A stretch of DNA of 42,355 bases from a virus, in the IMG/VR virus record IMGVR_UViG_3300046533_000104, positions 1-42,355 of that record; one strand, written 5' to 3'. A model generated the notes under the pieces. The model saw nothing but the letters and a program-made list of their open reading frames with translations, had not been told where the DNA came from and did not search any database. The position numbers were made by a program, and so were the translations under genes. Positions 32,783 to 41,916 of the stretch are shown here, in pieces. Each line of letters opens with the position of its first letter. Within the stretch, counting starts at the first letter, position 1.

Positions 32783-34780
32783 TTAGGCCGAGTTCTTGAA
32801 AGTCCACTCGTCGTTGACGTTGTCCGCGAAGTAGTACGCGGGCGTGGTCGGGACGGCGTAGACCCGCAGCGACTGACCCGAGGCAAGCGCGATCGGGGTG
32901 GCCGTATCCATCACCGCGTCGGTGTCACCGCGATGGTACGTGACGCCCGTGACGGTCGGGACCGTGATGTCGTTGTTCGCGAACGCGGGCTTCGTCGGCT
33001 TGACGAGCACGGAGTTCATGGCGACCTTCCGGACCACGAGAGCGGAACGGATCTTCGTGAGCGCGCCGGAGAGGCGGGTCTCCAGCAGGTACTTGTACTG
33101 GTTGTAGTCGATGTCGAAGTCGTCGAAGAACGCGACGTCGCCACCCTTGTCGGCGCCGAGAGTGTAGTCCCTCAGGTTGACGATGATCCCGACGATCTCG
33201 GGCTCGGACTCCATGACTTCGACCTCGACGATGCCTGCGACGCCCATCGCGGAGGCCAGTTCGGCCTTGTTGTTCCACAGGCGACGGCCCATGCCATCCT
33301 TCGCGAGGATGAGTTCGGTGTAGACCGCCAGCGTCGTGTAGAACGTCGGCGAACCCGAGCCCTTGTAGAGGCCCATGGACCGGATGATGGCCTCGACGAT
33401 CTCCTCGGGGGAGGAGTCGGCGTCATCGATGTTGACGTACACCGAACCGGCGTAGAGGTCGTGATCGTTGGCGATCGAGCGGATGCCAGCGCCTTCGACG
33501 GCACCGATCGGATCCTTGATCTTGTCCTCGTCGTCCACTTCGCGACCGTCACCGATCAGAACCGCGCGCGCGAGTTCCTCATCGAGCATGACCCGCATCT
33601 CGCCCTTGAGCCAGGCGACGACGTCGAAGTCGGTGATGTCGATGATGTCGTCACGGTCCAGCTTCTGCTTCTTGTAGACCGTGGAGGGCGTCGTCACCCT
33701 CTTGGAGACGCCGAACCACTCTTCCTTCTTGAAGTTGCCCTTGATGTAGCCCTTGGCACGGGCTTCGTCGAAGGTGAGGTCGGCGACGAGGGACTTGATT
33801 CGGGAGAACGGGGAGTGCTTGGTCCCGTTGATGACTCCGGCGACCCACTCGGTCCGGCGCTTGTCGAACTCGGGGGTGGCGTCGACTGCGCGGGCGTCGG
33901 GAAACAGGACCTCGATGTTCTCGATGCCGTGCTTTAGCGCGAAGGCCTCAACTGCGCCCTTGAGCGAGCCGTTCTTCTTGGCGTCCTCGACGATTCCCGC
34001 GATCTCGTCGTGCGAGAGAACGCGACTGCCGGGACCGTCCTTCTTGCCTTCTTTCTGCTGCTCGAAGACGTTGCGAGACATCCAGATTCCTTCCTTCTTC
34101 TCAGACTTGTCGGAATGCTGTGCGGTACCCGCCTCTTCGAGCGCGGCGCCGACCATGTAATGCACGACAGCCTGCTCTTCCTCAGACATGGCGTCGTAGA
34201 CTTCTTGGACGGTCGGGCCGTCCCCTTCCTTCGTGTCCTTCTTGGCTGCCGGATCCTCAGCGTGCTTGAGCACGTCGTCGGTGTAGACGATGACCTCATC
34301 GGACAACGTGACGACTTCGCCATCACTGTGAGCGACGGAGACGTTGTCGATAAAGGCGCCCGGATTGGCGCCCGCCATGACCAGGCTGACCTCGCGGATC
34401 ATGCCATGCAGAACGTTCGAAGCCTTCTCGACCAGCTGATTGGCGTAGATCGAGAGGTGCTTGATGTCTTCGTGCTGCACCAGCGTCTTGGCGTTCGTGC
34501 CTTGCGGGGCGTCGTTGAAGTACCCGTAGCAGTAAACGCCATCGTCGCGATTCTCGAGCACCGCGTGGCCGAGGACGTTCGACGGTTCACTATGACCATG
34601 TGACCAGACCAGCGGAACGGTCATCTTGTCTTGATGCTTGAACGCATCCTTCATGATTGTCCGGCCATCCGAGCACTTCAGGCCAGCCTTCGTGGCATAG
34701 CCACTGAAATCGGGCTCGCGATCGTGCATGAGGCTGCCACCGAGCGTAACGCTCAAGTCGGGCTTAGCCTTCGCTCCCAT
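32783..34780 (-). CDS. Protease-scaffold-major capsid polyprotein with Ig-like tail
   Basis: 665 residues, ATG 34780. Residues about 1-150 are an S78-type prohead protease (VPLVWSHGHSEPSNVLGHA, probable His61; KHLSIYAN, probable Ser110; MIREVSLVMAGANPGAFIDN). A charged linker (about 165-235, E/D/K/Q) looks like scaffold. Residues about 240-600 are an HK97-like capsid domain (RIKSLVADLTFDEARAKGYI, YVNIDDADSSPEEIVEAIIR, TLAVYTELILAKDGMGRRLW). The last about 60 residues form an Ig-like module as in the major tail protein. An internal ATG at 34081 (residue 234, MSRNVF) has AAGGAAGGAATC upstream and could give capsid alone. Confidence 0.88.
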   Translation of the reverse strand: MGAKAKPDLSVTLGGSLMHDREPDFSGYATKAGLKCSDGRTIMKDAFKHQDKMTVPLVWSHGHSEPSNVLGHAVLENRDDGVYCYGYFNDAPQGTNAKTLVQHEDIKHLSIYANQLVEKASNVLHGMIREVSLVMAGANPGAFIDNVSVAHSDGEVVTLSDEVIVYTDDVLKHAEDPAAKKDTKEGDGPTVQEVYDAMSEEEQAVVHYMVGAALEEAGTAQHSDKSEKKEGIWMSRNVFEQQKEGKKDGPGSRVLSHDEIAGIVEDAKKNGSLKGAVEAFALKHGIENIEVLFPDARAVDATPEFDKRRTEWVAGVINGTKHSPFSRIKSLVADLTFDEARAKGYIKGNFKKEEWFGVSKRVTTPSTVYKKQKLDRDDIIDITDFDVVAWLKGEMRVMLDEELARAVLIGDGREVDDEDKIKDPIGAVEGAGIRSIANDHDLYAGSVYVNIDDADSSPEEIVEAIIRSMGLYKGSGSPTFYTTLAVYTELILAKDGMGRRLWNNKAELASAMGVAGIVEVEVMESEPEIVGIIVNLRDYTLGADKGGDVAFFDDFDIDYNQYKYLLETRLSGALTKIRSALVVRKVAMNSVLVKPTKPAFANNDITVPTVTGVTYHRGDTDAVMDTATPIALASGQSLRVYAVPTTPAYYFADNVNDEWTFKNSA

Positions 34781-34806: not shown

Positions 34807-36078
34807 TTAGGCTTCTTTAGCCAGACTTGACGGTACAGGTGGTCTACGAAGTGGAGTCACAACAGCAGACTTTGCTGTCTCGTCGAGGGGCTGCGGCATG
34901 TTAGCGTTGCGAAGTTCGTCAGCCTTTGGATCCTTGGATGGAGCAATGCCGATGACTTGACGCATCTCGTTGGACGACATGATCTCGTTACGAGTGAACT
35001 TGTCTGCAATCTCAGCGATGTTCTCGATGGGAACCAAGCGGAACGGATCCCGGAAGTACATAACTGTTTGTTTCTGTGACCGAGCAGTCTGTGTAAGAAA
35101 GGAACGCCGATAGGCTTCGACGATAGCGGTGAGAAAGGGCTCGATCGTGCGATTGTAGTAGTTCAACATGGCCTTTTCATCAGCCGTGCCGTTCATGATC
35201 TCTTCGGTAAGCCCGAGTTGACCATAGAGCATCTTGACCAGATACTCGATCTGCGTGAGTAGGTTGTTCTCAGCCGGACGGTTAAGCTGAGTGATCTTCT
35301 CGGTTCCATCGGTGTAGGCGATGCCGTACTGGCTCCCCTTCAACTGGAACTCGATGTCCTGCCTACGCTGCTCAGCCTGCTGTCGCTTAGCTTCACTCTT
35401 GATCACATAGGGAAGCTGAATGATGATGTCCAACTTACCGGATGCAACCAGATCATCAGACGTATCCAACAGATTGAGCTTCCGAATCAGTCTTTGAAGA
35501 GTTGAGTTCGGCTCGTTCATCACCGAATACAACGGATTCTCGATGATCGCGCACGCCTTCTTGGGAAGAGTGATCTCCTCGCGCATACCGTTGAGTTCGT
35601 TATACAGGCTGACTCGAATGTGTTGTGGATACCAGGCCGTAATCTCACCGACCCGCATCGTTTTGATGTCAAAGCCCCCACTCTTCTCAGGACTGATGCT
35701 TGTATCCACTGGGACAATCGCAGCGACACCTCTATCGCACAGCGTCATCGCAATGTCCTGCCTGAATTGCCTAGCGGCCTGATCAATGTTGGCTTCAAGC
35801 ACCAAACACTGATTCAAACCACTGTTAATGTCCTCGAGATAGCGGTTCTGCTCATCTGTACGGACATGCCGCATGTCAATCGCAGCAATGTCAATACTAA
35901 GTCGCGTGTAGATCGAGGAGATGATTGAGCGCTCATTCGAGAACACAATTCGCGTACGATCCGGCCTTGAGCTGTATGCTGAGCCATAATCGCCCGTATA
36001 AGTACGTAGACGACGCTGTTCATCCTGGTTTGTAAATACGTTCCAGGCATGTTTCAGTTTCGCACCAAATCGCGCCAC
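34807..36078 (-). CDS. Portal protein (HK97-type)
   Basis: 423 residues from GTG 36078 (GAGGAGGTG upstream). FSNERSIISSIYTRLSIDIA, then a beta wing with WYPQHIRVSLYNELNG, the stem GQLGLTEEIMNGTADEKAML NYYNRTIEPFL, and TVMYFRDPFRLVPIENIAEI ADKFTRNEIMSSNEMRQVIG match HK97-family portals. Forms the dodecameric ring through which DNA passes. It precedes the protease-capsid gene. Confidence 0.85.
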   Translation of the reverse strand: MARFGAKLKHAWNVFTNQDEQRRLRTYTGDYGSAYSSRPDRTRIVFSNERSIISSIYTRLSIDIAAIDMRHVRTDEQNRYLEDINSGLNQCLVLEANIDQAARQFRQDIAMTLCDRGVAAIVPVDTSISPEKSGGFDIKTMRVGEITAWYPQHIRVSLYNELNGMREEITLPKKACAIIENPLYSVMNEPNSTLQRLIRKLNLLDTSDDLVASGKLDIIIQLPYVIKSEAKRQQAEQRRQDIEFQLKGSQYGIAYTDGTEKITQLNRPAENNLLTQIEYLVKMLYGQLGLTEEIMNGTADEKAMLNYYNRTIEPFLTAIVEAYRRSFLTQTARSQKQTVMYFRDPFRLVPIENIAEIADKFTRNEIMSSNEMRQVIGIAPSKDPKADELRNANMPQPLDETAKSAVVTPLRRPPVPSSLAKEA

Positions 36079-36091
36079 ATTTCACCTCCTC

Positions 36092-36865
36092 TCATCCCTT
36101 AGCCTTCTTGAGGAACTCTTCGGCATACTTCTTGGCTGCATCAGCTTCAGATTTTGAGACCCCGCTTTTATCGATGAACGATTTAGCTGCCTCAGTTTTA
36201 CTAGAATCATATGCAGGCAGATCATAATGTGCATCATATGCAGGCTTCAATTTTGGCCAAATCTTTGACATAACGTCACTTTGACTGTTAATACCTTCAG
36301 TCATCGACTTGGGGATGAGAACCTGATGCGGAATAACTCGTCCAGAAAAATCTTTTCTACCCGATGGATCTAGGAATGAACTCGCTATAGAACCATCATC
36401 AAGCTTCTCAAATACATCAAGTTTACCCGAATTAGCCCCAAATGCTCTCTCATAACTAGCGAGTGGATCGGGTATGCCACCCTTCTTAAGGAACCCAAAA
36501 CCCCTGTTCTTACCTCTTGTAGCGTGAATAATATCGGTAGGTTCTTGGACGATCTTCTTCACGACAGCCGTGGTTTGAGGCGTCGGAGGCTTCTTCTTGA
36601 GCGCAGATAGAGGTAGTTTCCCGTTCTGATGGAGCTTATAGCCCACAAATGCAGCACCAGCAACCGCAACAAGAATGCCTGTACCAATGGCAACTTGTTT
36701 AGCCCTATGCTTTCTTTCAGGTGTCCAGAACGGCCCTTTATCCGCTTTAGCGGGTTTAGCTGCCCCAGATCCTCCAGTTTCCGCCTTCCGAACCCCCCAC
36801 TTCATCCCCTTGGTACCGAAATGTACAAGTTCAGCCGGGGACCCTGGTTTCTCAGTCGAGATCAC
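36092..36865 (-). CDS. Virion-type protein with GTKGMKWGVRK peptide and membrane helix
   Basis: 257 residues from GTG 36865 (GTGA overlap with the terminase stop). Residues 15-27 are HFGTKGMKWGVRK. Residues about 53-76 (HRAKQVAIGTGILVAVAGAA) form a membrane span. The C-terminal part (DIIHATRGKNRGFGFLKKGG, DPLASYERAFG, DVMSKIWPKLKPAYD) is a domain that I cannot name. Proteins with this peptide are frequent near phage portals. Its tail part is A/T-richer than its neighbours. Possible virion-internal, ejected protein. Confidence 0.6.
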   Translation of the reverse strand: MISTEKPGSPAELVHFGTKGMKWGVRKAETGGSGAAKPAKADKGPFWTPERKHRAKQVAIGTGILVAVAGAAFVGYKLHQNGKLPLSALKKKPPTPQTTAVVKKIVQEPTDIIHATRGKNRGFGFLKKGGIPDPLASYERAFGANSGKLDVFEKLDDGSIASSFLDPSGRKDFSGRVIPHQVLIPKSMTEGINSQSDVMSKIWPKLKPAYDAHYDLPAYDSSKTEAAKSFIDKSGVSKSEADAAKKYAEEFLKKAKG

Positions 36866-38607
36866 TCAAAGGCCTCCTTGTTGGCCTTGTACGCAATATA
36901 CGCGTCCATTAGAGCTGCGACATTGTCGATCTTCTCGTCCTGTCGCTTCTTCAGAAGCTTTCTATTACCGTTGGTGTCCTCCAACGTGATGGCGTTACCC
37001 ATAGCGAATGACATGAGCGCCTGATCAAAGATGAGTAGACGTTCTTCAGCCAGAATCTTCAATTCGCCGAGGGGGACCGACTCAGTTCGTGCGCCCTGAA
37101 GGACCTTTTCGATTCCGAACGGTCCATTCTCGCCTTCCCAGCGTGTCACGAACTCTTTGGCGTTGTATGGATCATACCCGAACGCGCGAACGTCAAAGTC
37201 TGATGCAAGAATGAAAGCATCGAGATCTTCGTAGACCTCCATCATGTCCAGAACCTTACCCTCCATGACATGAAGGCTTCCCTCATTGATGAACTCCTCA
37301 TACTTCATACGAATTGAGGCTTGAAGCTTCATCAACGTCAAAGTAGTGATGTAGCTACGGGTTTTTACTCCGTATCTATCTTCACCAATGGGGAAAAGGA
37401 AGGTGAAGGCACAGAAGTCGTCACCCTGAGAGAGGTCTGCGCCTAGAGCGCACGGCATCTGCCAGAATTCTCTCTGTCGATGGGGAATCGTCTCTTCATA
37501 AGTGAAGAAGTACGTGTAACCCTCCATCGGAATCCCGAAACGTTTCGCCAGAATATCATTTCGTGCCGCTGGCGCTTTCTCAGCTCGTTCTACATCAAGC
37601 TGATAGGTTTCGTAGGAGACTGTCGCCCCCAAGTTCGGATTCGCCTTCACCCACATCGCTGGATTGGCAACTTCCTCGATCTCATCGAGTTTGTAGTGCC
37701 AGATCGAAACATGGGGTGCTAGGTACTCACCCTTAAGGATGTCCGCTAGTTCCATTTTGATGGTGTCACCGGAACCATTGCGGACTGTACCTTCAGAGCT
37801 GATTGCGATGATCAAATAGTCCTCCAACTTGGAGGCTCCCTGCTCAACTGCACCAACAACGTCCTCTCTAAGATCTCCGGACAGCCACTCGTCGATTGTG
37901 GAGATCTTGGGACGCAGTCCCTGAAGTTTGTTGATAGCCATAGGACGGACCTCGAGTAGAGATCCGGTCAAGAAGTTCTCGATACCCTTCTTTGTGGCTG
38001 CCAACTTCACACGATTAGCTCTAGACCCAGTAGTGTTCTGGAGAGAGCCCTCGGTCAGGAACCGGAAGAGAGGTCCACGCGCACGGGTGATAGCCGTACG
38101 GAACGGGGACATGACCTCGTCGGCCTGCTTCATTGTCGGTGCAGTGGTGACCTGATGAGTCGTTGTCGTATCGACGTTCAGAAAGTAGCTCTGAATGAGC
38201 GACGCGTACATCGACTTTGCCGCCCCTCTGGCGACGATCAGATACTGCTTGAGGATCAACCGCTTCTTGATCGTTCTCTTCACATACCGTCCGCCCCTGT
38301 CGTGAGGCTTGGGCACGTAGACACTTCGCTCTACGAAGTAATACCATCCGAAGATCTGTTCAGACCACAACTTGAACGTATCGAGCAGATGTAGATCGGA
38401 GCCATCCGTGAGAGTGAGTTCGTTCTCACAGTAGAGAATGAATCCCTCAACGGCTTGGTCGTCGTAATAGATGTTCGGGTTAGCGATGAGTGCATCAATC
38501 CGATTCATCTCCTGAGAGATTTCACGGTTTACTGGAATCGCGCCTCGCAGGACTGCATCACGAAACAGCCCATAATACTTAGGCGTCGCAGTATTCGATA
38601 GACTCAA
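36862..38607 (-). CDS. terL: Terminase large subunit
   Basis: 581 residues from TTG 38607 (AGGGAGGG upstream). The ATPase shows a modified Walker A (LIVARGAAKSMYAS, about 123-136), Walker B KISTIDEW (about 232-239, D-E pair) and a coupling motif AISSEGT; the nuclease half has GADLSQGDDF (first Asp), YGVKTRSY and AFGYDPYN, and the end MDNVAALMDAYIAY-like helix. It packages DNA and makes cuts in concatemers. Family closest to phage Terminase_1 type. Confidence 0.88.
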   Translation of the reverse strand: MSLSNTATPKYYGLFRDAVLRGAIPVNREISQEMNRIDALIANPNIYYDDQAVEGFILYCENELTLTDGSDLHLLDTFKLWSEQIFGWYYFVERSVYVPKPHDRGGRYVKRTIKKRLILKQYLIVARGAAKSMYASLIQSYFLNVDTTTTHQVTTAPTMKQADEVMSPFRTAITRARGPLFRFLTEGSLQNTTGSRANRVKLAATKKGIENFLTGSLLEVRPMAINKLQGLRPKISTIDEWLSGDLREDVVGAVEQGASKLEDYLIIAISSEGTVRNGSGDTIKMELADILKGEYLAPHVSIWHYKLDEIEEVANPAMWVKANPNLGATVSYETYQLDVERAEKAPAARNDILAKRFGIPMEGYTYFFTYEETIPHRQREFWQMPCALGADLSQGDDFCAFTFLFPIGEDRYGVKTRSYITTLTLMKLQASIRMKYEEFINEGSLHVMEGKVLDMMEVYEDLDAFILASDFDVRAFGYDPYNAKEFVTRWEGENGPFGIEKVLQGARTESVPLGELKILAEERLLIFDQALMSFAMGNAITLEDTNGNRKLLKKRQDEKIDNVAALMDAYIAYKANKEAFE

Positions 38608-38620
38608 CTAACCCTCCCTT

Positions 38621-39589
38621 CTAAACTGCTGCGACAGCGGCAGCCTTAGCGGCCGTCTTGGCCATGTCTGCAGCCATCCATGAACCGATCTTCTTGCTTC
38701 CGTTCTTCTTCAACTCGTCCTCGGCCCACTTTCGACCGCTGGCCTTAGTCTTACTTCCAGACAGACGAAGGACGTTCTGCTCAAGATTCAGTCGGTTCAT
38801 CATCGTCTGAAGTTCAGCATTACTAAGAGCATTCGGTCCGCTCTTTTTGAGCGTCTGCTGCATAACTCGAACGTCAATGGCTTCTTTGACAGCAGGCTGA
38901 GCCCGTCCGCCACGAGTAGCCACCTTCGTCTTCATGTGCTTGCGCTGCTTGATCTTCCTGACGTGCGCCTCAGTGGTTGAACTCGAGCTGGCATCCTTCC
39001 GGACACCCCACTTCATCCCCTTGGTACCGTAGTGAGCAAGGGCGTTCGCAACGGCAGTCTTACCGTCTTCTACTACACTCATACTCACCTCCATGTCCCA
39101 GTCATAGGACTTCAGGGGAATCTCGATGCCCTCGTAGTCGCCGAACCAGACAGCGATCTTGTCAAAATTGACCCCGTAGAACTGGGGGTAATCGCGCTTG
39201 TCTTCCTTGGCCGGTGTCTCGGGATAGCCGAGAGTAAGGTGAGGGTGCCACTCGGGGAATTGCTCGACCGAATCATACGCCGTGCGGATGTTGTCATCCT
39301 TGAGCAAATATGAACGGAAGTTCTCGATGTCCTGAGTCCAGCGCTTGGAGAAGAAAAGCACATCGGCTTCATCTTCGCCCAGCGTTCCTCGACGATCCAC
39401 ATCCATGTAGAATCGCTTGAGCGTGACGCTTGCTGCGTGCGCGACGAACTCGGTGATGTCCTGCAGATTCGCGACGTTCTTGGCTTCGCCGAGGAACAAA
39501 ATCGTCATGTGTGGGACTTTTTCGCTGGAGACCTTCCAGACATAATCTTCCTGAGATGGGATGGCAACGATGACGACGTTTTCAGCCAT
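38621..39589 (-). CDS. 2H phosphoesterase fused to a GTKGMKWGVRK peptide and helical tail
   Basis: 322 residues. N-terminal 2H phosphoesterase: KVPHMTILFLG (H27, T29) and WHPHLTLGYP (H115 or H117, T119), the paired HxT/S motifs of RNA 2',3'-cyclic phosphodiesterases. Residues 186-198 are HYGTKGMKWGVRK, followed by a basic, helical C-terminus ending AAKAAAVAAV. This family includes enzymes that open cyclic nucleotides or act on 2'-5' oligoadenylate. The tag and the position beside terminase suggest delivery with the virion. Start ATG 39589. Confidence 0.75.
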   Translation of the reverse strand: MAENVVIVAIPSQEDYVWKVSSEKVPHMTILFLGEAKNVANLQDITEFVAHAASVTLKRFYMDVDRRGTLGEDEADVLFFSKRWTQDIENFRSYLLKDDNIRTAYDSVEQFPEWHPHLTLGYPETPAKEDKRDYPQFYGVNFDKIAVWFGDYEGIEIPLKSYDWDMEVSMSVVEDGKTAVANALAHYGTKGMKWGVRKDASSSSTTEAHVRKIKQRKHMKTKVATRGGRAQPAVKEAIDVRVMQQTLKKSGPNALSNAELQTMMNRLNLEQNVLRLSGSKTKASGRKWAEDELKKNGSKKIGSWMAADMAKTAAKAAAVAAV

Positions 39590-39968
39590 ACCTTACCTCA
39601 GGCAGCTCAGGCGGATCCGGATCAACCCATCCGGTCTCTTCTCGATGCACATTGAGCCGCCACTCAAGCTCGCCGATCTGCCGTTCCATCGCCGAGATCA
39701 AATATGACGTTTGCGGCGGATCGAAAAGCTGACGAGTCTTGAGGTAAACGTAGGTCTTGACCGAATTGTACTGAAGATCCAACGAAACAAAATCTGTCCA
39801 TTCCGCAGTGTCGTCCTCGATCATGAACCCCATGGGAGGTCCCACTCCCAACTGGGTGAGAATGGAGAACGCCGTATTGATGTGAGTAATGACATCATGA
39901 TCGAACACCGTATAGTCAGGTGCTAGGCCCAGGATCTTCTTAGTGCTGATTAGAATACTCGTTTCCAT
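39582..39968 (-). CDS. Head-tail connector (adaptor)-like protein (128 aa)
   Basis: ATG 39968 with GGGGGTGAG upstream. METSILISTKKILGLAPDYT, VFDHDVITHINTAFSILTQL, GFMIEDDTAEWTDFV, LKTRQLFDPPQTSYLISAME resemble phage connector proteins of the HK97 gp6 / SPP1 gp15 type (N-terminal helices and 'LGL..DYTxFDxDI..HIN'). Unusually it is encoded upstream of terL rather than after the capsid gene. Confidence 0.7.
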   Translation of the reverse strand: METSILISTKKILGLAPDYTVFDHDVITHINTAFSILTQLGVGPPMGFMIEDDTAEWTDFVSLDLQYNSVKTYVYLKTRQLFDPPQTSYLISAMERQIGELEWRLNVHREETGWVDPDPPELPEVRYG

Positions 39969-40271: not shown

Positions 40272-40401
40272 TCGCTTTCTCCTTCCGGCGACGTATGATT
40301 CGATAACGACTACTAAGATACCAACCACCAATTGCGCCAATAACGAAAGATTCCGGCGCTTGTGAGATGAAATCCCAGGCTTCATCGAGAAGCGACCACA
40401 T
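40237..40401 (-). CDS. Holin candidate (54 aa)
   Basis: ATG 40401 overlaps the endolysin stop (TGATG). MWSLLDEAWDFISQAPESFV then IGAIGGWYLSSRYRIIRRRK: one hydrophobic segment (about 18-32) followed by a strongly basic tail, the usual plan of small type-II/III holins. Directly downstream of the endolysin. Assignment is by size and place. Confidence 0.5.
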   Translation of the reverse strand: MWSLLDEAWDFISQAPESFVIGAIGGWYLSSRYRIIRRRKEKANGNGESRTGER

Positions 40402-41486
40402 CAATCCGCCCGGATGAGGCCATAGCCCGTCCAGTAGCTGTGATGCCGGGGCTTCTTGGCGACGACGTCGCCGTTCCACTGTGATCCACCGCTGGACTCA
40501 CCCGAAGTGTTGCCTTCAACTCCGAGAATGTTGCCGTTGGTCTGAAGAGTCCCGCGCGCGACGCCCGTATGATCGTCATCGATGAACATGTGATCGCCGA
40601 TACGTACCTTGGAGGGATCAGTGGTGTATCCCTTGTAGATGCCTTTGCCCTGCTTGGCTAGTTCGGTGTTGTTCCAGACTCCGGCGGTTCCGGATCCCGA
40701 GATCCCCGCGTCCCATGCCGAGCAAACCGAAAAGCACGCACACCACGGAACGCCATCATCACCGTAGACACGTTCCTGCCATGTGCTGGGTTGGGGATGG
40801 CCGGTGTTCGATCCCTTCGGACTCTCAGAAACGCCAACGTACTTGTCCAGCCACTTGGCAATTTGTTCCCTCTTGGAATCCTCCGGAGAATATGGTTCAC
40901 CGTACTTGTTGTGTTCCTTGTCCCACTTCTCGTAGGCGGATCCGTAGTGGGTGGCGATGCAGAGGTTGTCGTACCGCGTCTGCCGATCGTTCGCCTTGTT
41001 TCCCTCAGGATCATCCTCCATCAGATGCCAGAGCTTCTTGCGCTGGTTGACCAGCCAGTCGACATTGGCCTGCTTACGAGCTTTCTGCTCCTCGTACTGA
41101 GAACCGAAGGCGAGATAGACTTCCCGCTCCTCGATGTAAGACTTCTCAGCATCCGTAGATGTGCTTGTGCACGGCAAGCGAACTTCGTGCTTGGGCTCTC
41201 CACTGTTAAGAGTGGAAATATAGTCGTACCGCTCACCTCGATTGGAAGTCTCCCAACCAGGCTCCTCACCAGGCACAGCGCCATCGGCCAACTGGACCAA
41301 GTATGCCTGACGATCGAGCAACCACGTACGACTCTGGTCACGACGTTGATCCTGCTGATCATCAAAGCCAGGCCAGTCGGAGATCGCTCTGAGATTCGTG
41401 TACTCATCGAAGGTTGCCTGCTCACCCTCGGTGAGAACGCCGTATGTTCCCGTACCCTTGTACTTAGAGGGTGCGTCGTAACTCAT
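40401..41486 (-). CDS. Endolysin with C-terminal CHAP-type domain
   Basis: 361 residues from ATG 41486 (GAAGGGAGAG upstream). The N-terminal about 200 residues are charged and helical with several YxxxW/WLxxRxxY patterns and may bind the wall. Residues about 220-361 resemble a CHAP amidase/peptidase: WLDKYVGVSESPKGSNTGHP, then DGVPWCACFSVCSAWDAGIS (catalytic Cys candidates), GDHMFIDDDHTGV (His candidate) and ILGVEGNTS. It should cut peptidoglycan at lysis. Confidence 0.75.
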   Translation of the reverse strand: MSYDAPSKYKGTGTYGVLTEGEQATFDEYTNLRAISDWPGFDDQQDQRRDQSRTWLLDRQAYLVQLADGAVPGEEPGWETSNRGERYDYISTLNSGEPKHEVRLPCTSTSTDAEKSYIEEREVYLAFGSQYEEQKARKQANVDWLVNQRKKLWHLMEDDPEGNKANDRQTRYDNLCIATHYGSAYEKWDKEHNKYGEPYSPEDSKREQIAKWLDKYVGVSESPKGSNTGHPQPSTWQERVYGDDGVPWCACFSVCSAWDAGISGSGTAGVWNNTELAKQGKGIYKGYTTDPSKVRIGDHMFIDDDHTGVARGTLQTNGNILGVEGNTSGESSGGSQWNGDVVAKKPRHHSYWTGYGLIRAD

Positions 41487-41502
41487 CGCTCTCCCTTCTT
41501 GG

Positions 41503-41916
41503 TTACCAAAGCTTTGTGTCACCCGCTTTTCGAGGAACATACACCTTGGAAAGCTGGCTTTCGTCGCCGTAATGGATTGCGTTGTGGGTCTGATGTGTTG
41601 TGGTAATGAGGAATTCCGGGTCGATAAGCAGCTCTCTGCCTGCTTCTATGTCCTTCACAGAAATCGGATTCATGTGATGAACCAGCAATCCCTCGAAGAT
41701 CTCATACCCAAAAACACCTAGATCACACCCATGATCACGCAGAATAACGACCGATCGGGCCTGTTTCCACTCCCTGGATGTGTAAAACCCTTGGTTGATC
41801 CACCGATCAAACCCAAACGTGCTCTCACCGACAATACCGACCAAACGAAGGTAGTAATAGCGCTCTTCGAAGGTCTCGTACTGTTTGAGTTCAGAATATG
41901 TTCTAATCTGCGACAT
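41503..41916 (-). CDS. HNH endonuclease
   Basis: 137 residues from ATG 41916, overlapping the upstream gene by 14 nt. ARSVVILRDHGCDLGVFGYE, then LLVHHMNPISVKDI, then DPEFLITTTHQTHNAIHYGD: the HH pair, Asn and final His of a phage HNH domain. Family knowledge: HNH proteins next to terminase genes support DNA cleavage during packaging. The preceding N-terminal part has a Tyr-rich helix (FEERYYYLRLVG). Confidence 0.8.
   Translation of the reverse strand: MSQIRTYSELKQYETFEERYYYLRLVGIVGESTFGFDRWINQGFYTSREWKQARSVVILRDHGCDLGVFGYEIFEGLLVHHMNPISVKDIEAGRELLIDPEFLITTTHQTHNAIHYGDESQLSKVYVPRKAGDTKLW

What the first reader, a model, noticed from the sequence alone, without database searches (positions are those of the whole stretch)
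38621..39589. 2H phosphoesterase carrying the same peptide as a second virion-region protein
Two HxT motifs define a 2H phosphoesterase, a fold used by Acb1-like and 2'-5' phosphodiesterase anti-defence enzymes. It is joined to HYGTKGMKWGVRK and a helical tail and lies between connector and terminase genes. It could be packaged in the capsid and injected to destroy a defence signal before gene expression.
Basis: inference. Interest (0 to 1): 0.75.

Follow-up and report, generated by a model that had tools for sequence, protein, structure and literature searches.

The report
Phage head-cargo enzyme with packaging tag
This phage gene joins an enzyme domain of a kind that can cut signalling nucleotides or RNA ends to a short peptide shared by many otherwise unrelated proteins of one large group of phages, and the peptide looks like a label that loads proteins into the virus head.

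Summary
ORF 38621-39589(-) is a 2H phosphoesterase (invariant HxT pair; predicted fold matches YjcG, LigT and Usb1), then a DUF7211 peptide, then a basic helical module. It lies between connector and TerL. A second protein (36092-36865) carries almost the same peptide.

The peptide is a recurring tag of unknown function that I found in no paper searched. It occurs 421 times in 388 mostly unrelated ORFs, usually near the N-terminus, 1-8 per phage. In 26 long virus records, 73 of 75 tags lie just upstream of the protease-capsid fusion gene (7 expected). Genus-level counts of tagged phages and of phages with this head type almost coincide. Tagged proteins include papain-fold toxin, GNAT, ADP-ribosyltransferase and 2H domains. 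Syntenic Lactococcus phage 1706 gp07 bears two tags and is labelled structural. The same 2H family is fused to MuF, another head protein, in a different phage lineage.

Best reading: DUF7211 is a head-targeting tag, analogous to T4's capsid targeting sequence, and this is a packaged 2H effector. Packaging is inferred; injection and substrate are untested. A 2017 paper already proposed injected MuF/portal-fused 2H; the tag system is the new part.

The parts
38621..39589 (-). tagged 2H phosphoesterase protein, 322 aa (P0001)
39095..39589 (-). 2H phosphoesterase domain, residues 1-165
   Evidence: Pfam PF13563; phrog_24711 E 9e-70; AF2 blocks mostly 79-90 pLDDT over residues 1-160, one block 67; 2H folds Z up to 13.1
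39503..39511 (-). first HxT motif (H27-T29)
   Evidence: invariant H27 and T29 in 20 of 20 aligned homologs
39233..39241 (-). second HxT motif (H117-T119)
   Evidence: invariant H117 and T119 in 20 of 20 aligned homologs
38990..39055 (-). DUF7211 tag, residues 179-200
   Evidence: Pfam PF23847; predicted disordered
38651..38911 (-). conserved core module after the tag (residues 227-313, LSNAEL...RLNLEQ)
   Evidence: module found in 126 ORFs of 125 loci
36092..36865 (-). second DUF7211-tagged protein, 257 aa: tag, hydrophobic segment, alpha/beta C-terminal part
36779..36838 (-). DUF7211 tag of the second protein
39582..39968 (-). connector protein (context)
   Evidence: PF24829 E 2e-39
36862..38607 (-). 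terminase large subunit (context)
   Evidence: PF20441 E 2e-35
34807..36078 (-). portal protein (context)
   Evidence: PF04860 E 3e-13
32783..34780 (-). prohead protease-major capsid fusion, the head type that goes with the tag
   Evidence: PF04586 and PF05065; phrog_3270 E 3e-235

Best explanation
The gene makes a head-cargo protein of three modules. A swappable 2H phosphoesterase sits in front of a DUF7211 tag, followed by a conserved basic helical core that most loci examined encode once, between connector and terminase. The tag is a short disordered docking peptide that recruits proteins to the growing prohead of 1706-type phages (prohead protease fused to the capsid protein), as T4's capsid targeting sequence does for its internal proteins. 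The protein would then stay in the head and enter the next host with the DNA, where the 2H domain would hydrolyse a 2'-5' or cyclic phosphate bond in a defence nucleotide or an RNA end. Shown here: the domains, the conserved active site, the tag family, its near-complete link to this head type, and its attachment to many effector-like domains. Inferred: docking, encapsidation, ejection and the substrate.
For: (1) 2H fold and catalytic residues. The 2H part is under strong purifying selection, dN/dS 0.02-0.09 in all 6 pairs of 4 sequences. (2) The tag occurs in 388 ORFs, 296 after removing those 50% or more identical. (3) Tag and head type: tagged records Arthrobacter 95, Gordonia 55, Streptomyces 54, Curtobacterium 7, Microbacterium 4, Faecalibacterium 2 against the same six numbers for the protease-capsid fusion. 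26 of 26 long tagged virus records hold the fusion; 73 of 75 tags over the cut-off lie within 11 kb upstream of it on its strand, 7.0 expected. Head genes accompany the tag in 119 of 120 viral and 34 of 36 bacterial-genome loci. (4) Cargo: of 138 tagged ORFs, 10 papain-fold toxin 1, 9 2H, up to 4 GNAT, 1 ADP-ribosyltransferase. (5) Phage 1706 gp07, same slot, has two tags and the core module and is labelled structural. (6) The same 2H family is fused to MuF in Squash and Tank, which lack the tag in the 13 kb examined. (7) T4 analogy: passages of PMC3012670 and PMC7697877.
Against: No virion proteomics was available; that 1706 gp07 was seen by mass spectrometry is recalled, and that paper is not held. 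1706 gp07 itself gave no match to the 2H profile. The tag's partner is unknown. The tag is usually N-terminal but internal here. Tag similarity within a phage is partly DNA copying: identical synonymous codons 2582 of 4770, 2050.5 expected. 2 of 75 tags lie elsewhere, and 1 viral and 2 bacterial-genome loci showed none of the four head genes. A 2H fold does not give a substrate.
Confidence: 0.62

Rival explanations
1. The tag and core are head-assembly parts (a scaffold-like or portal-vertex protein) that never enter the host; the 2H domain acts in the producing cell late in infection, or only structurally.
For: The core module is found once per locus almost throughout (126 ORFs in 125 of 172 loci) and usually without 2H (21 of 126 have it). 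It is basic, predicted helical and lies among head genes.
Against: Tags also sit on many unrelated enzyme-like proteins, hard to explain by one assembly role. The 2H catalytic residues are invariant.
Confidence: 0.2
2. The protein is packaged and injected, but the 2H domain acts on RNA ends (2',3'-cyclic phosphate repair or trimming, LigT/Usb1-like), not on a defence signal.
For: Best structural matches are YjcG, plant CPDase, Usb1 and LigT (Z 12-13), above Acb1 (Z 9.2). NCBIfam's best hit is RNA 2',3'-cyclic phosphodiesterase, below its cut-off. Iyer 2017 lists an RNase role.
Against: Rotavirus VP3, a 2'-5' oligoadenylate PDE, matches as well (Z 12.0). Fold rank does not decide a substrate.
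Confidence: 0.3
3. DUF7211 is a recognition or cleavage site of the prohead protease, or a DNA-binding patch, and head location follows from that.
For: The tag goes with the protease-capsid fusion in 26 of 26 records. It is short, basic, predicted disordered here and followed by a Ser/Gly-rich linker in many proteins.
Against: No cleavage data. The nearly invariant H, G, G, W and G go beyond a simple basic patch.
Confidence: 0.2
4. The tag is only a spreading linker or duplicated cassette without a targeting role.
For: Tags within a phage share more synonymous codons than codon usage predicts. 30 of 284 complete non-redundant ORFs have two or more tags.
Against: A neutral cassette would not be confined to one head type and one gene block, nor keep the same residues across Lactococcus, Gordonia and Faecalibacterium phages.
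Confidence: 0.07

Closest known systems
T4 capsid targeting sequence and internal proteins (IPI-III, Alt)
   Same: A short shared peptide on a varied set of phage proteins, many effector-like, made with the head (passages of PMC3012670 and PMC7697877).
   Different: T4's is about 10 residues, N-terminal and removed by the head protease. DUF7211 spans 25 model positions, can be internal or repeated, has a different sequence, and its packaging and cleavage are untested.
2H phosphoesterases in MuF/portal fusions (polyvalent proteins, PMC5512222)
   Same: 2H domain attached to a head protein. Squash gp25 and Tank gp18 carry the same 2H family as the window protein.
   Different: The window protein has no MuF or portal match; it carries DUF7211 and the core module instead.
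MuF polymorphic toxins (PMC5576092)
   Same: Head-linked delivery of varied effector domains is proposed there too (passages).
   Different: There the anchor is a folded MuF domain; here it is a peptide, with several tagged proteins per phage.
Acb1 anti-CBASS nuclease (PMC9117128)
   Same: 2H fold with an HxT/HxT tetrad (structure match Z 9.2).
   Different: No head anchor was mentioned in the passages read. Its aromatic base-stacking residues and C-terminal lid were not mapped here. LigT-type folds match better.
Pfam DUF7211 (PF23847) and Lactococcus phage 1706 gp07
   Same: Same peptide family; gp07 sits in the same slot with two tags and the core module.
   Different: gp07 gave no match to the 2H profile. 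DUF7211 has no assigned function.

Membership tests
2H phosphoesterase superfamily | two HxT motifs | tested here: met
   H27-T29 and H117-T119, invariant in 20 of 20 aligned homologs
2H phosphoesterase superfamily | 2H fold | tested here: met
   residues 1-161: YjcG Z 13.1, plant CPDase 12.8, Usb1 12.4, LigT 12.2
2H phosphoesterase superfamily | phosphodiesterase activity | not testable with these tools
   needs an enzyme assay
DUF7211 (PF23847) | score over Pfam's curated cut-off | tested here: met
   42.9 and 36 bits against 27 for the two window proteins
Acb1 | HxT/HxT tetrad in a 2H fold | tested here: met
Acb1 | aromatic stacking residues (Y12, W74, F107, W147), E141 and closing C-terminal lid | not tested
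   features from passages of PMC9117128; no residue mapping was made
Acb1 | cleavage of cyclic oligonucleotides | not testable with these tools
   needs an enzyme assay
T4 capsid targeting sequence | short N-terminal peptide shared by otherwise unrelated proteins | tested here: not met
   shared peptide yes, but in the window protein it is internal (residues 179-200); over 284 complete non-redundant ORFs, 264 of 315 tags lie in the first 75 residues
T4 capsid targeting sequence | encapsidates proteins and is cut by the head protease | not testable with these tools
   needs packaging and proteomics experiments
MuF polymorphic toxins | MuF domain (PF04233) | tested here: not met
   no PF04233 match at E up to 1 in the window protein

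The most novel reading that the evidence does not exclude
DUF7211 is a largely position-independent head-loading tag used throughout phages with the 1706-type protease-capsid head, infecting Actinobacteria and Firmicutes. Through it each virion carries a small arsenal, one to eight or more different effectors, including nucleotide-cutting 2H enzymes, into the host before any phage gene is expressed.
Probability: 0.5. Interest if true: 0.85.

Novelty: new variant of a known kind. Interest (0 to 1): 0.68.

Why it matters
If right, one short peptide marks the packaged cargo of a large phage group and turns hundreds of 'hypothetical protein' genes into a searchable list of likely injected effectors. 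It would also give a packaging tag for phages of Gram-positive hosts, comparable to T4's targeting sequence. The 2H protein would be a directly testable case of a counter-defence or RNA-acting enzyme delivered with the DNA.

Tried and rejected
Acb1 membership: the fold fits less well than LigT-type enzymes and the substrate-contact residues were not mapped, so I do not file it there.

Tag as part of a fold: the AF2 model leaves residues 164-231 under pLDDT 50, so the tag region gives no structural information. Solved structures: no PDB chain matched the whole protein apart from one chance hit at E 1.4, and none matched the tag peptide (E up to 10), the protease-capsid fusion (E up to 0.01) or the portal (E up to 0.01).

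Second tagged protein: the model is poor (mean pLDDT 53.6) and the best structural match is Z 4.4, so its domain is unresolved.

Coadaptation of tags to one receptor: tags of non-homologous proteins in one phage are more alike than shuffled (0.778 against a mean of 0.686, maximum 0.709 in 1000 shuffles; first version with harsher merging of loci 0.726 against 0.633), but synonymous codons also show copying, so I do not claim coadaptation. The tag sets were collected by a fixed pattern, so conservation at the patterned positions is partly built in.

Literature: no paper held DUF7211 or any of six tag peptides. Searches for virion proteomics of Arthrobacter phages and of phage 1706 gave nothing usable; searches for ReqiPepy6, LigT-like phage PDEs and virion 2H gave no tag paper in their listings. 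Papers were seen as follows: PMC5512222 passages and section 20; PMC3012670, PMC7697877, PMC5576092, PMC9117128, PMC7824862 and PMC4155818 passages; the rest search listings only.

Full report
What is there. The ORF at 38621-39589 on the minus strand encodes 322 residues. Residues 1-165 are a 2H phosphoesterase domain: Pfam 2_5_RNA_ligase2 just over its cut-off (27.3 against 27 bits) and a predicted fold matching YjcG, plant CPDase, Usb1, LigT and rotavirus VP3 at Z 12-13, Acb1 at 9.2. H27, T29, H117 and T119 are invariant in 20 of 20 aligned homologs. In all 6 pairs of four close sequences the 2H part has dN/dS 0.02-0.09, the rest 0.13-0.30. Residues 179-200 are Pfam DUF7211, a family of unknown function, in a stretch predicted disordered. 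Residues 227-313 are a basic, predicted helical module. The gene overlaps the connector gene by 8 bases and is followed by TerL, then a second DUF7211 protein (36092-36865), the portal and a protease-capsid fusion.

The peptide is a widespread tag. With a relaxed pattern, 421 tags were found in 388 ORFs of the loci then held and the window; 296 ORFs remain after removing those 50% or more identical. In 284 complete non-redundant ORFs, 264 of 315 tags lie in the first 75 residues, 46 lie more than 100 residues in, and 30 ORFs have two or more tags. The same pattern on reversed sequence gave 0 matches in 1.76 Mb. One phage can carry many: ReqiPepy6 8, ReqiPoco6 7, Paella 6 within the stretches read.

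The tag belongs to one kind of head. In 50,697 phage records the tag peptide matched 229 (Arthrobacter 95, Gordonia 55, Streptomyces 54, Curtobacterium 7, Rhodococcus 5, Microbacterium 4, Faecalibacterium 2 and others). The window's protease-capsid fusion matched 244 (95, 55, 54, 7, 4, 4, 2 in the same order, plus Lactococcus 13 and others). The counts agree by genus; identity record by record was not checked. Lactococcus was missed by the tag search, probably because its tags are divergent: phages 1706 and P118, the two I read, carry them. All 25 records of 32 kb or more among the 80 loci listed, plus L173, hold the fusion (26 of 26). Of 78 tag matches there, 75 are over the cut-off; all 75 are on the fusion's strand and 73 lie within 11 kb upstream of it, 7.0 expected by chance. 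At least one of TerL, portal, capsid fusion and connector is in the same stretch in 119 of 120 viral loci (the miss is a 1,991-base locus) and 34 of 36 bacterial-genome loci.

What the tag is attached to. Of 138 tagged ORFs (the two of the window and the longest non-redundant ones), Pfam finds papain-fold toxin 1 in 10, 2H in 9 (LigT in 8), GNAT acetyltransferase in up to 4 and ADP-ribosyltransferase exoenzyme in 1; DUF7211 is in all 138 and most have no other informative match. Some ORFs string modules together, such as 2H-tag-GNAT-tag-core in L095.

The core module. A profile of the region behind the tag found 126 ORFs in 125 of 172 loci, 124 of them with a tag in the same ORF and 123 with it upstream. 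41 have more than 130 residues before that tag: 21 are 2H, 16 form another cluster by sequence and 4 are singletons. So the window protein is a conserved core protein with an exchangeable 2H domain in front. Lactococcus 1706 gp07, in the same slot, has two tags and this core (E 5e-8) and is labelled 'structural protein' in the original record, where terminase and portal are 'putative'. That this label rests on mass spectrometry is recalled; the paper is not held.

An independent link of 2H to the head. The 2H domain alone, with no demand for the tag, matched 125 phage records: Gordonia 55, Streptomyces 7 and Rhodococcus 4 (tag confirmed in the 5 phages I read: ReqiPepy6, ReqiPoco6, ClubPenguin, Tanis, OhMyWard), and Microbacterium 43, Arthrobacter 14 and Curtobacterium 2. 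Of the 28 rows listed from these last three genera, 24 are annotated as capsid or head maturation protease (several with MuF), 1 as virion structural, 1 as capsid morphogenesis, 1 as RNA ligase and 1 as hypothetical. Squash gp25 and Tank gp18 have MuF followed by 2H (MuF in Squash is below Pfam's cut-off, in Tank just above; both 2H matches are below it). Both keep the HxT pair and have no tag in the 13 kb read. The same enzyme family is thus attached to two unrelated head-linked modules.

How it probably works. The tag would dock its protein to a prohead component, most simply the portal or the protease-capsid fusion; the protein is enclosed, DNA is packaged, and the protein leaves with the DNA. 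T4 offers the model: passages of PMC7697877 say a roughly 10-residue N-terminal sequence encapsidates virtually any protein and is removed by the head protease, and PMC3012670 describes the internal proteins as a diverse defence set sharing only that sequence. For the enzyme step, Iyer and colleagues (PMC5512222, section 20) proposed that 2H domains fused to MuF or portal act as RNases or degrade nucleotides of nucleotide-activated defences. My evidence does not choose between these.

Weak points. No packaging experiment exists here. Similarity of tags within one phage (0.778 against 0.686 shuffled) is partly DNA copying (2582 identical codons of 4770, 2050.5 expected). The tag is internal in this protein. 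The partner of the tag and the fold of the second window protein are unknown.

Verdict. The defence-signal idea is possible, already published in general form, and untested. The surprise is the tag system: one unexplained peptide marking a varied set of proteins throughout a head lineage.

Noticed in passing
L174:3983-7237 (Squash gp25) and L175:3258-5759 (Tank gp18): The same 2H family is fused behind a MuF domain in phages of another head type that lack the tag in the region read.
   Followed up: partly
window 36092-36865: The second tagged protein has a hydrophobic segment (residues 58-76, mean hydropathy 1.99) behind its tag; 39 of 358 complete tagged ORFs have such a segment. They might enter a membrane after ejection.
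   Followed up: partly
records G005, G010, G019 (TAA), G015 (TGA twice), G017 (TAG): The protease-capsid fusion match runs through in-frame stop codons in five virus records. This could be split genes, recoding or a changed genetic code.
   Followed up: no
L166:2013-2879 (OhMyWard gp05) and the tag at 1061 in record G008: Tagged ORFs far from the head block; a near-identical record to OhMyWard (G011) and G008 give the two exceptions of 75.
   Followed up: no
L074:1813-2970: A core-module protein with a different N-terminal domain that reminds me of TraB or erythromycin-esterase-like enzymes (recalled); Pfam finds only DUF7211.
   Followed up: no
alignment A1: 10 of 138 tagged ORFs match papain-fold toxin 1 (glutamine deamidase), a polymorphic-toxin domain, in phage head modules.
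   Followed up: no
window 40401-41540: 379-residue ORF upstream of the connector that looks to me like a CHAP- or NlpC-type lysin by eye, without a significant Pfam or NCBIfam match.
   Followed up: no
L125: A tag in a Kiritimatiellae metagenome genome with none of the four head genes in 8 kb.
   Followed up: no
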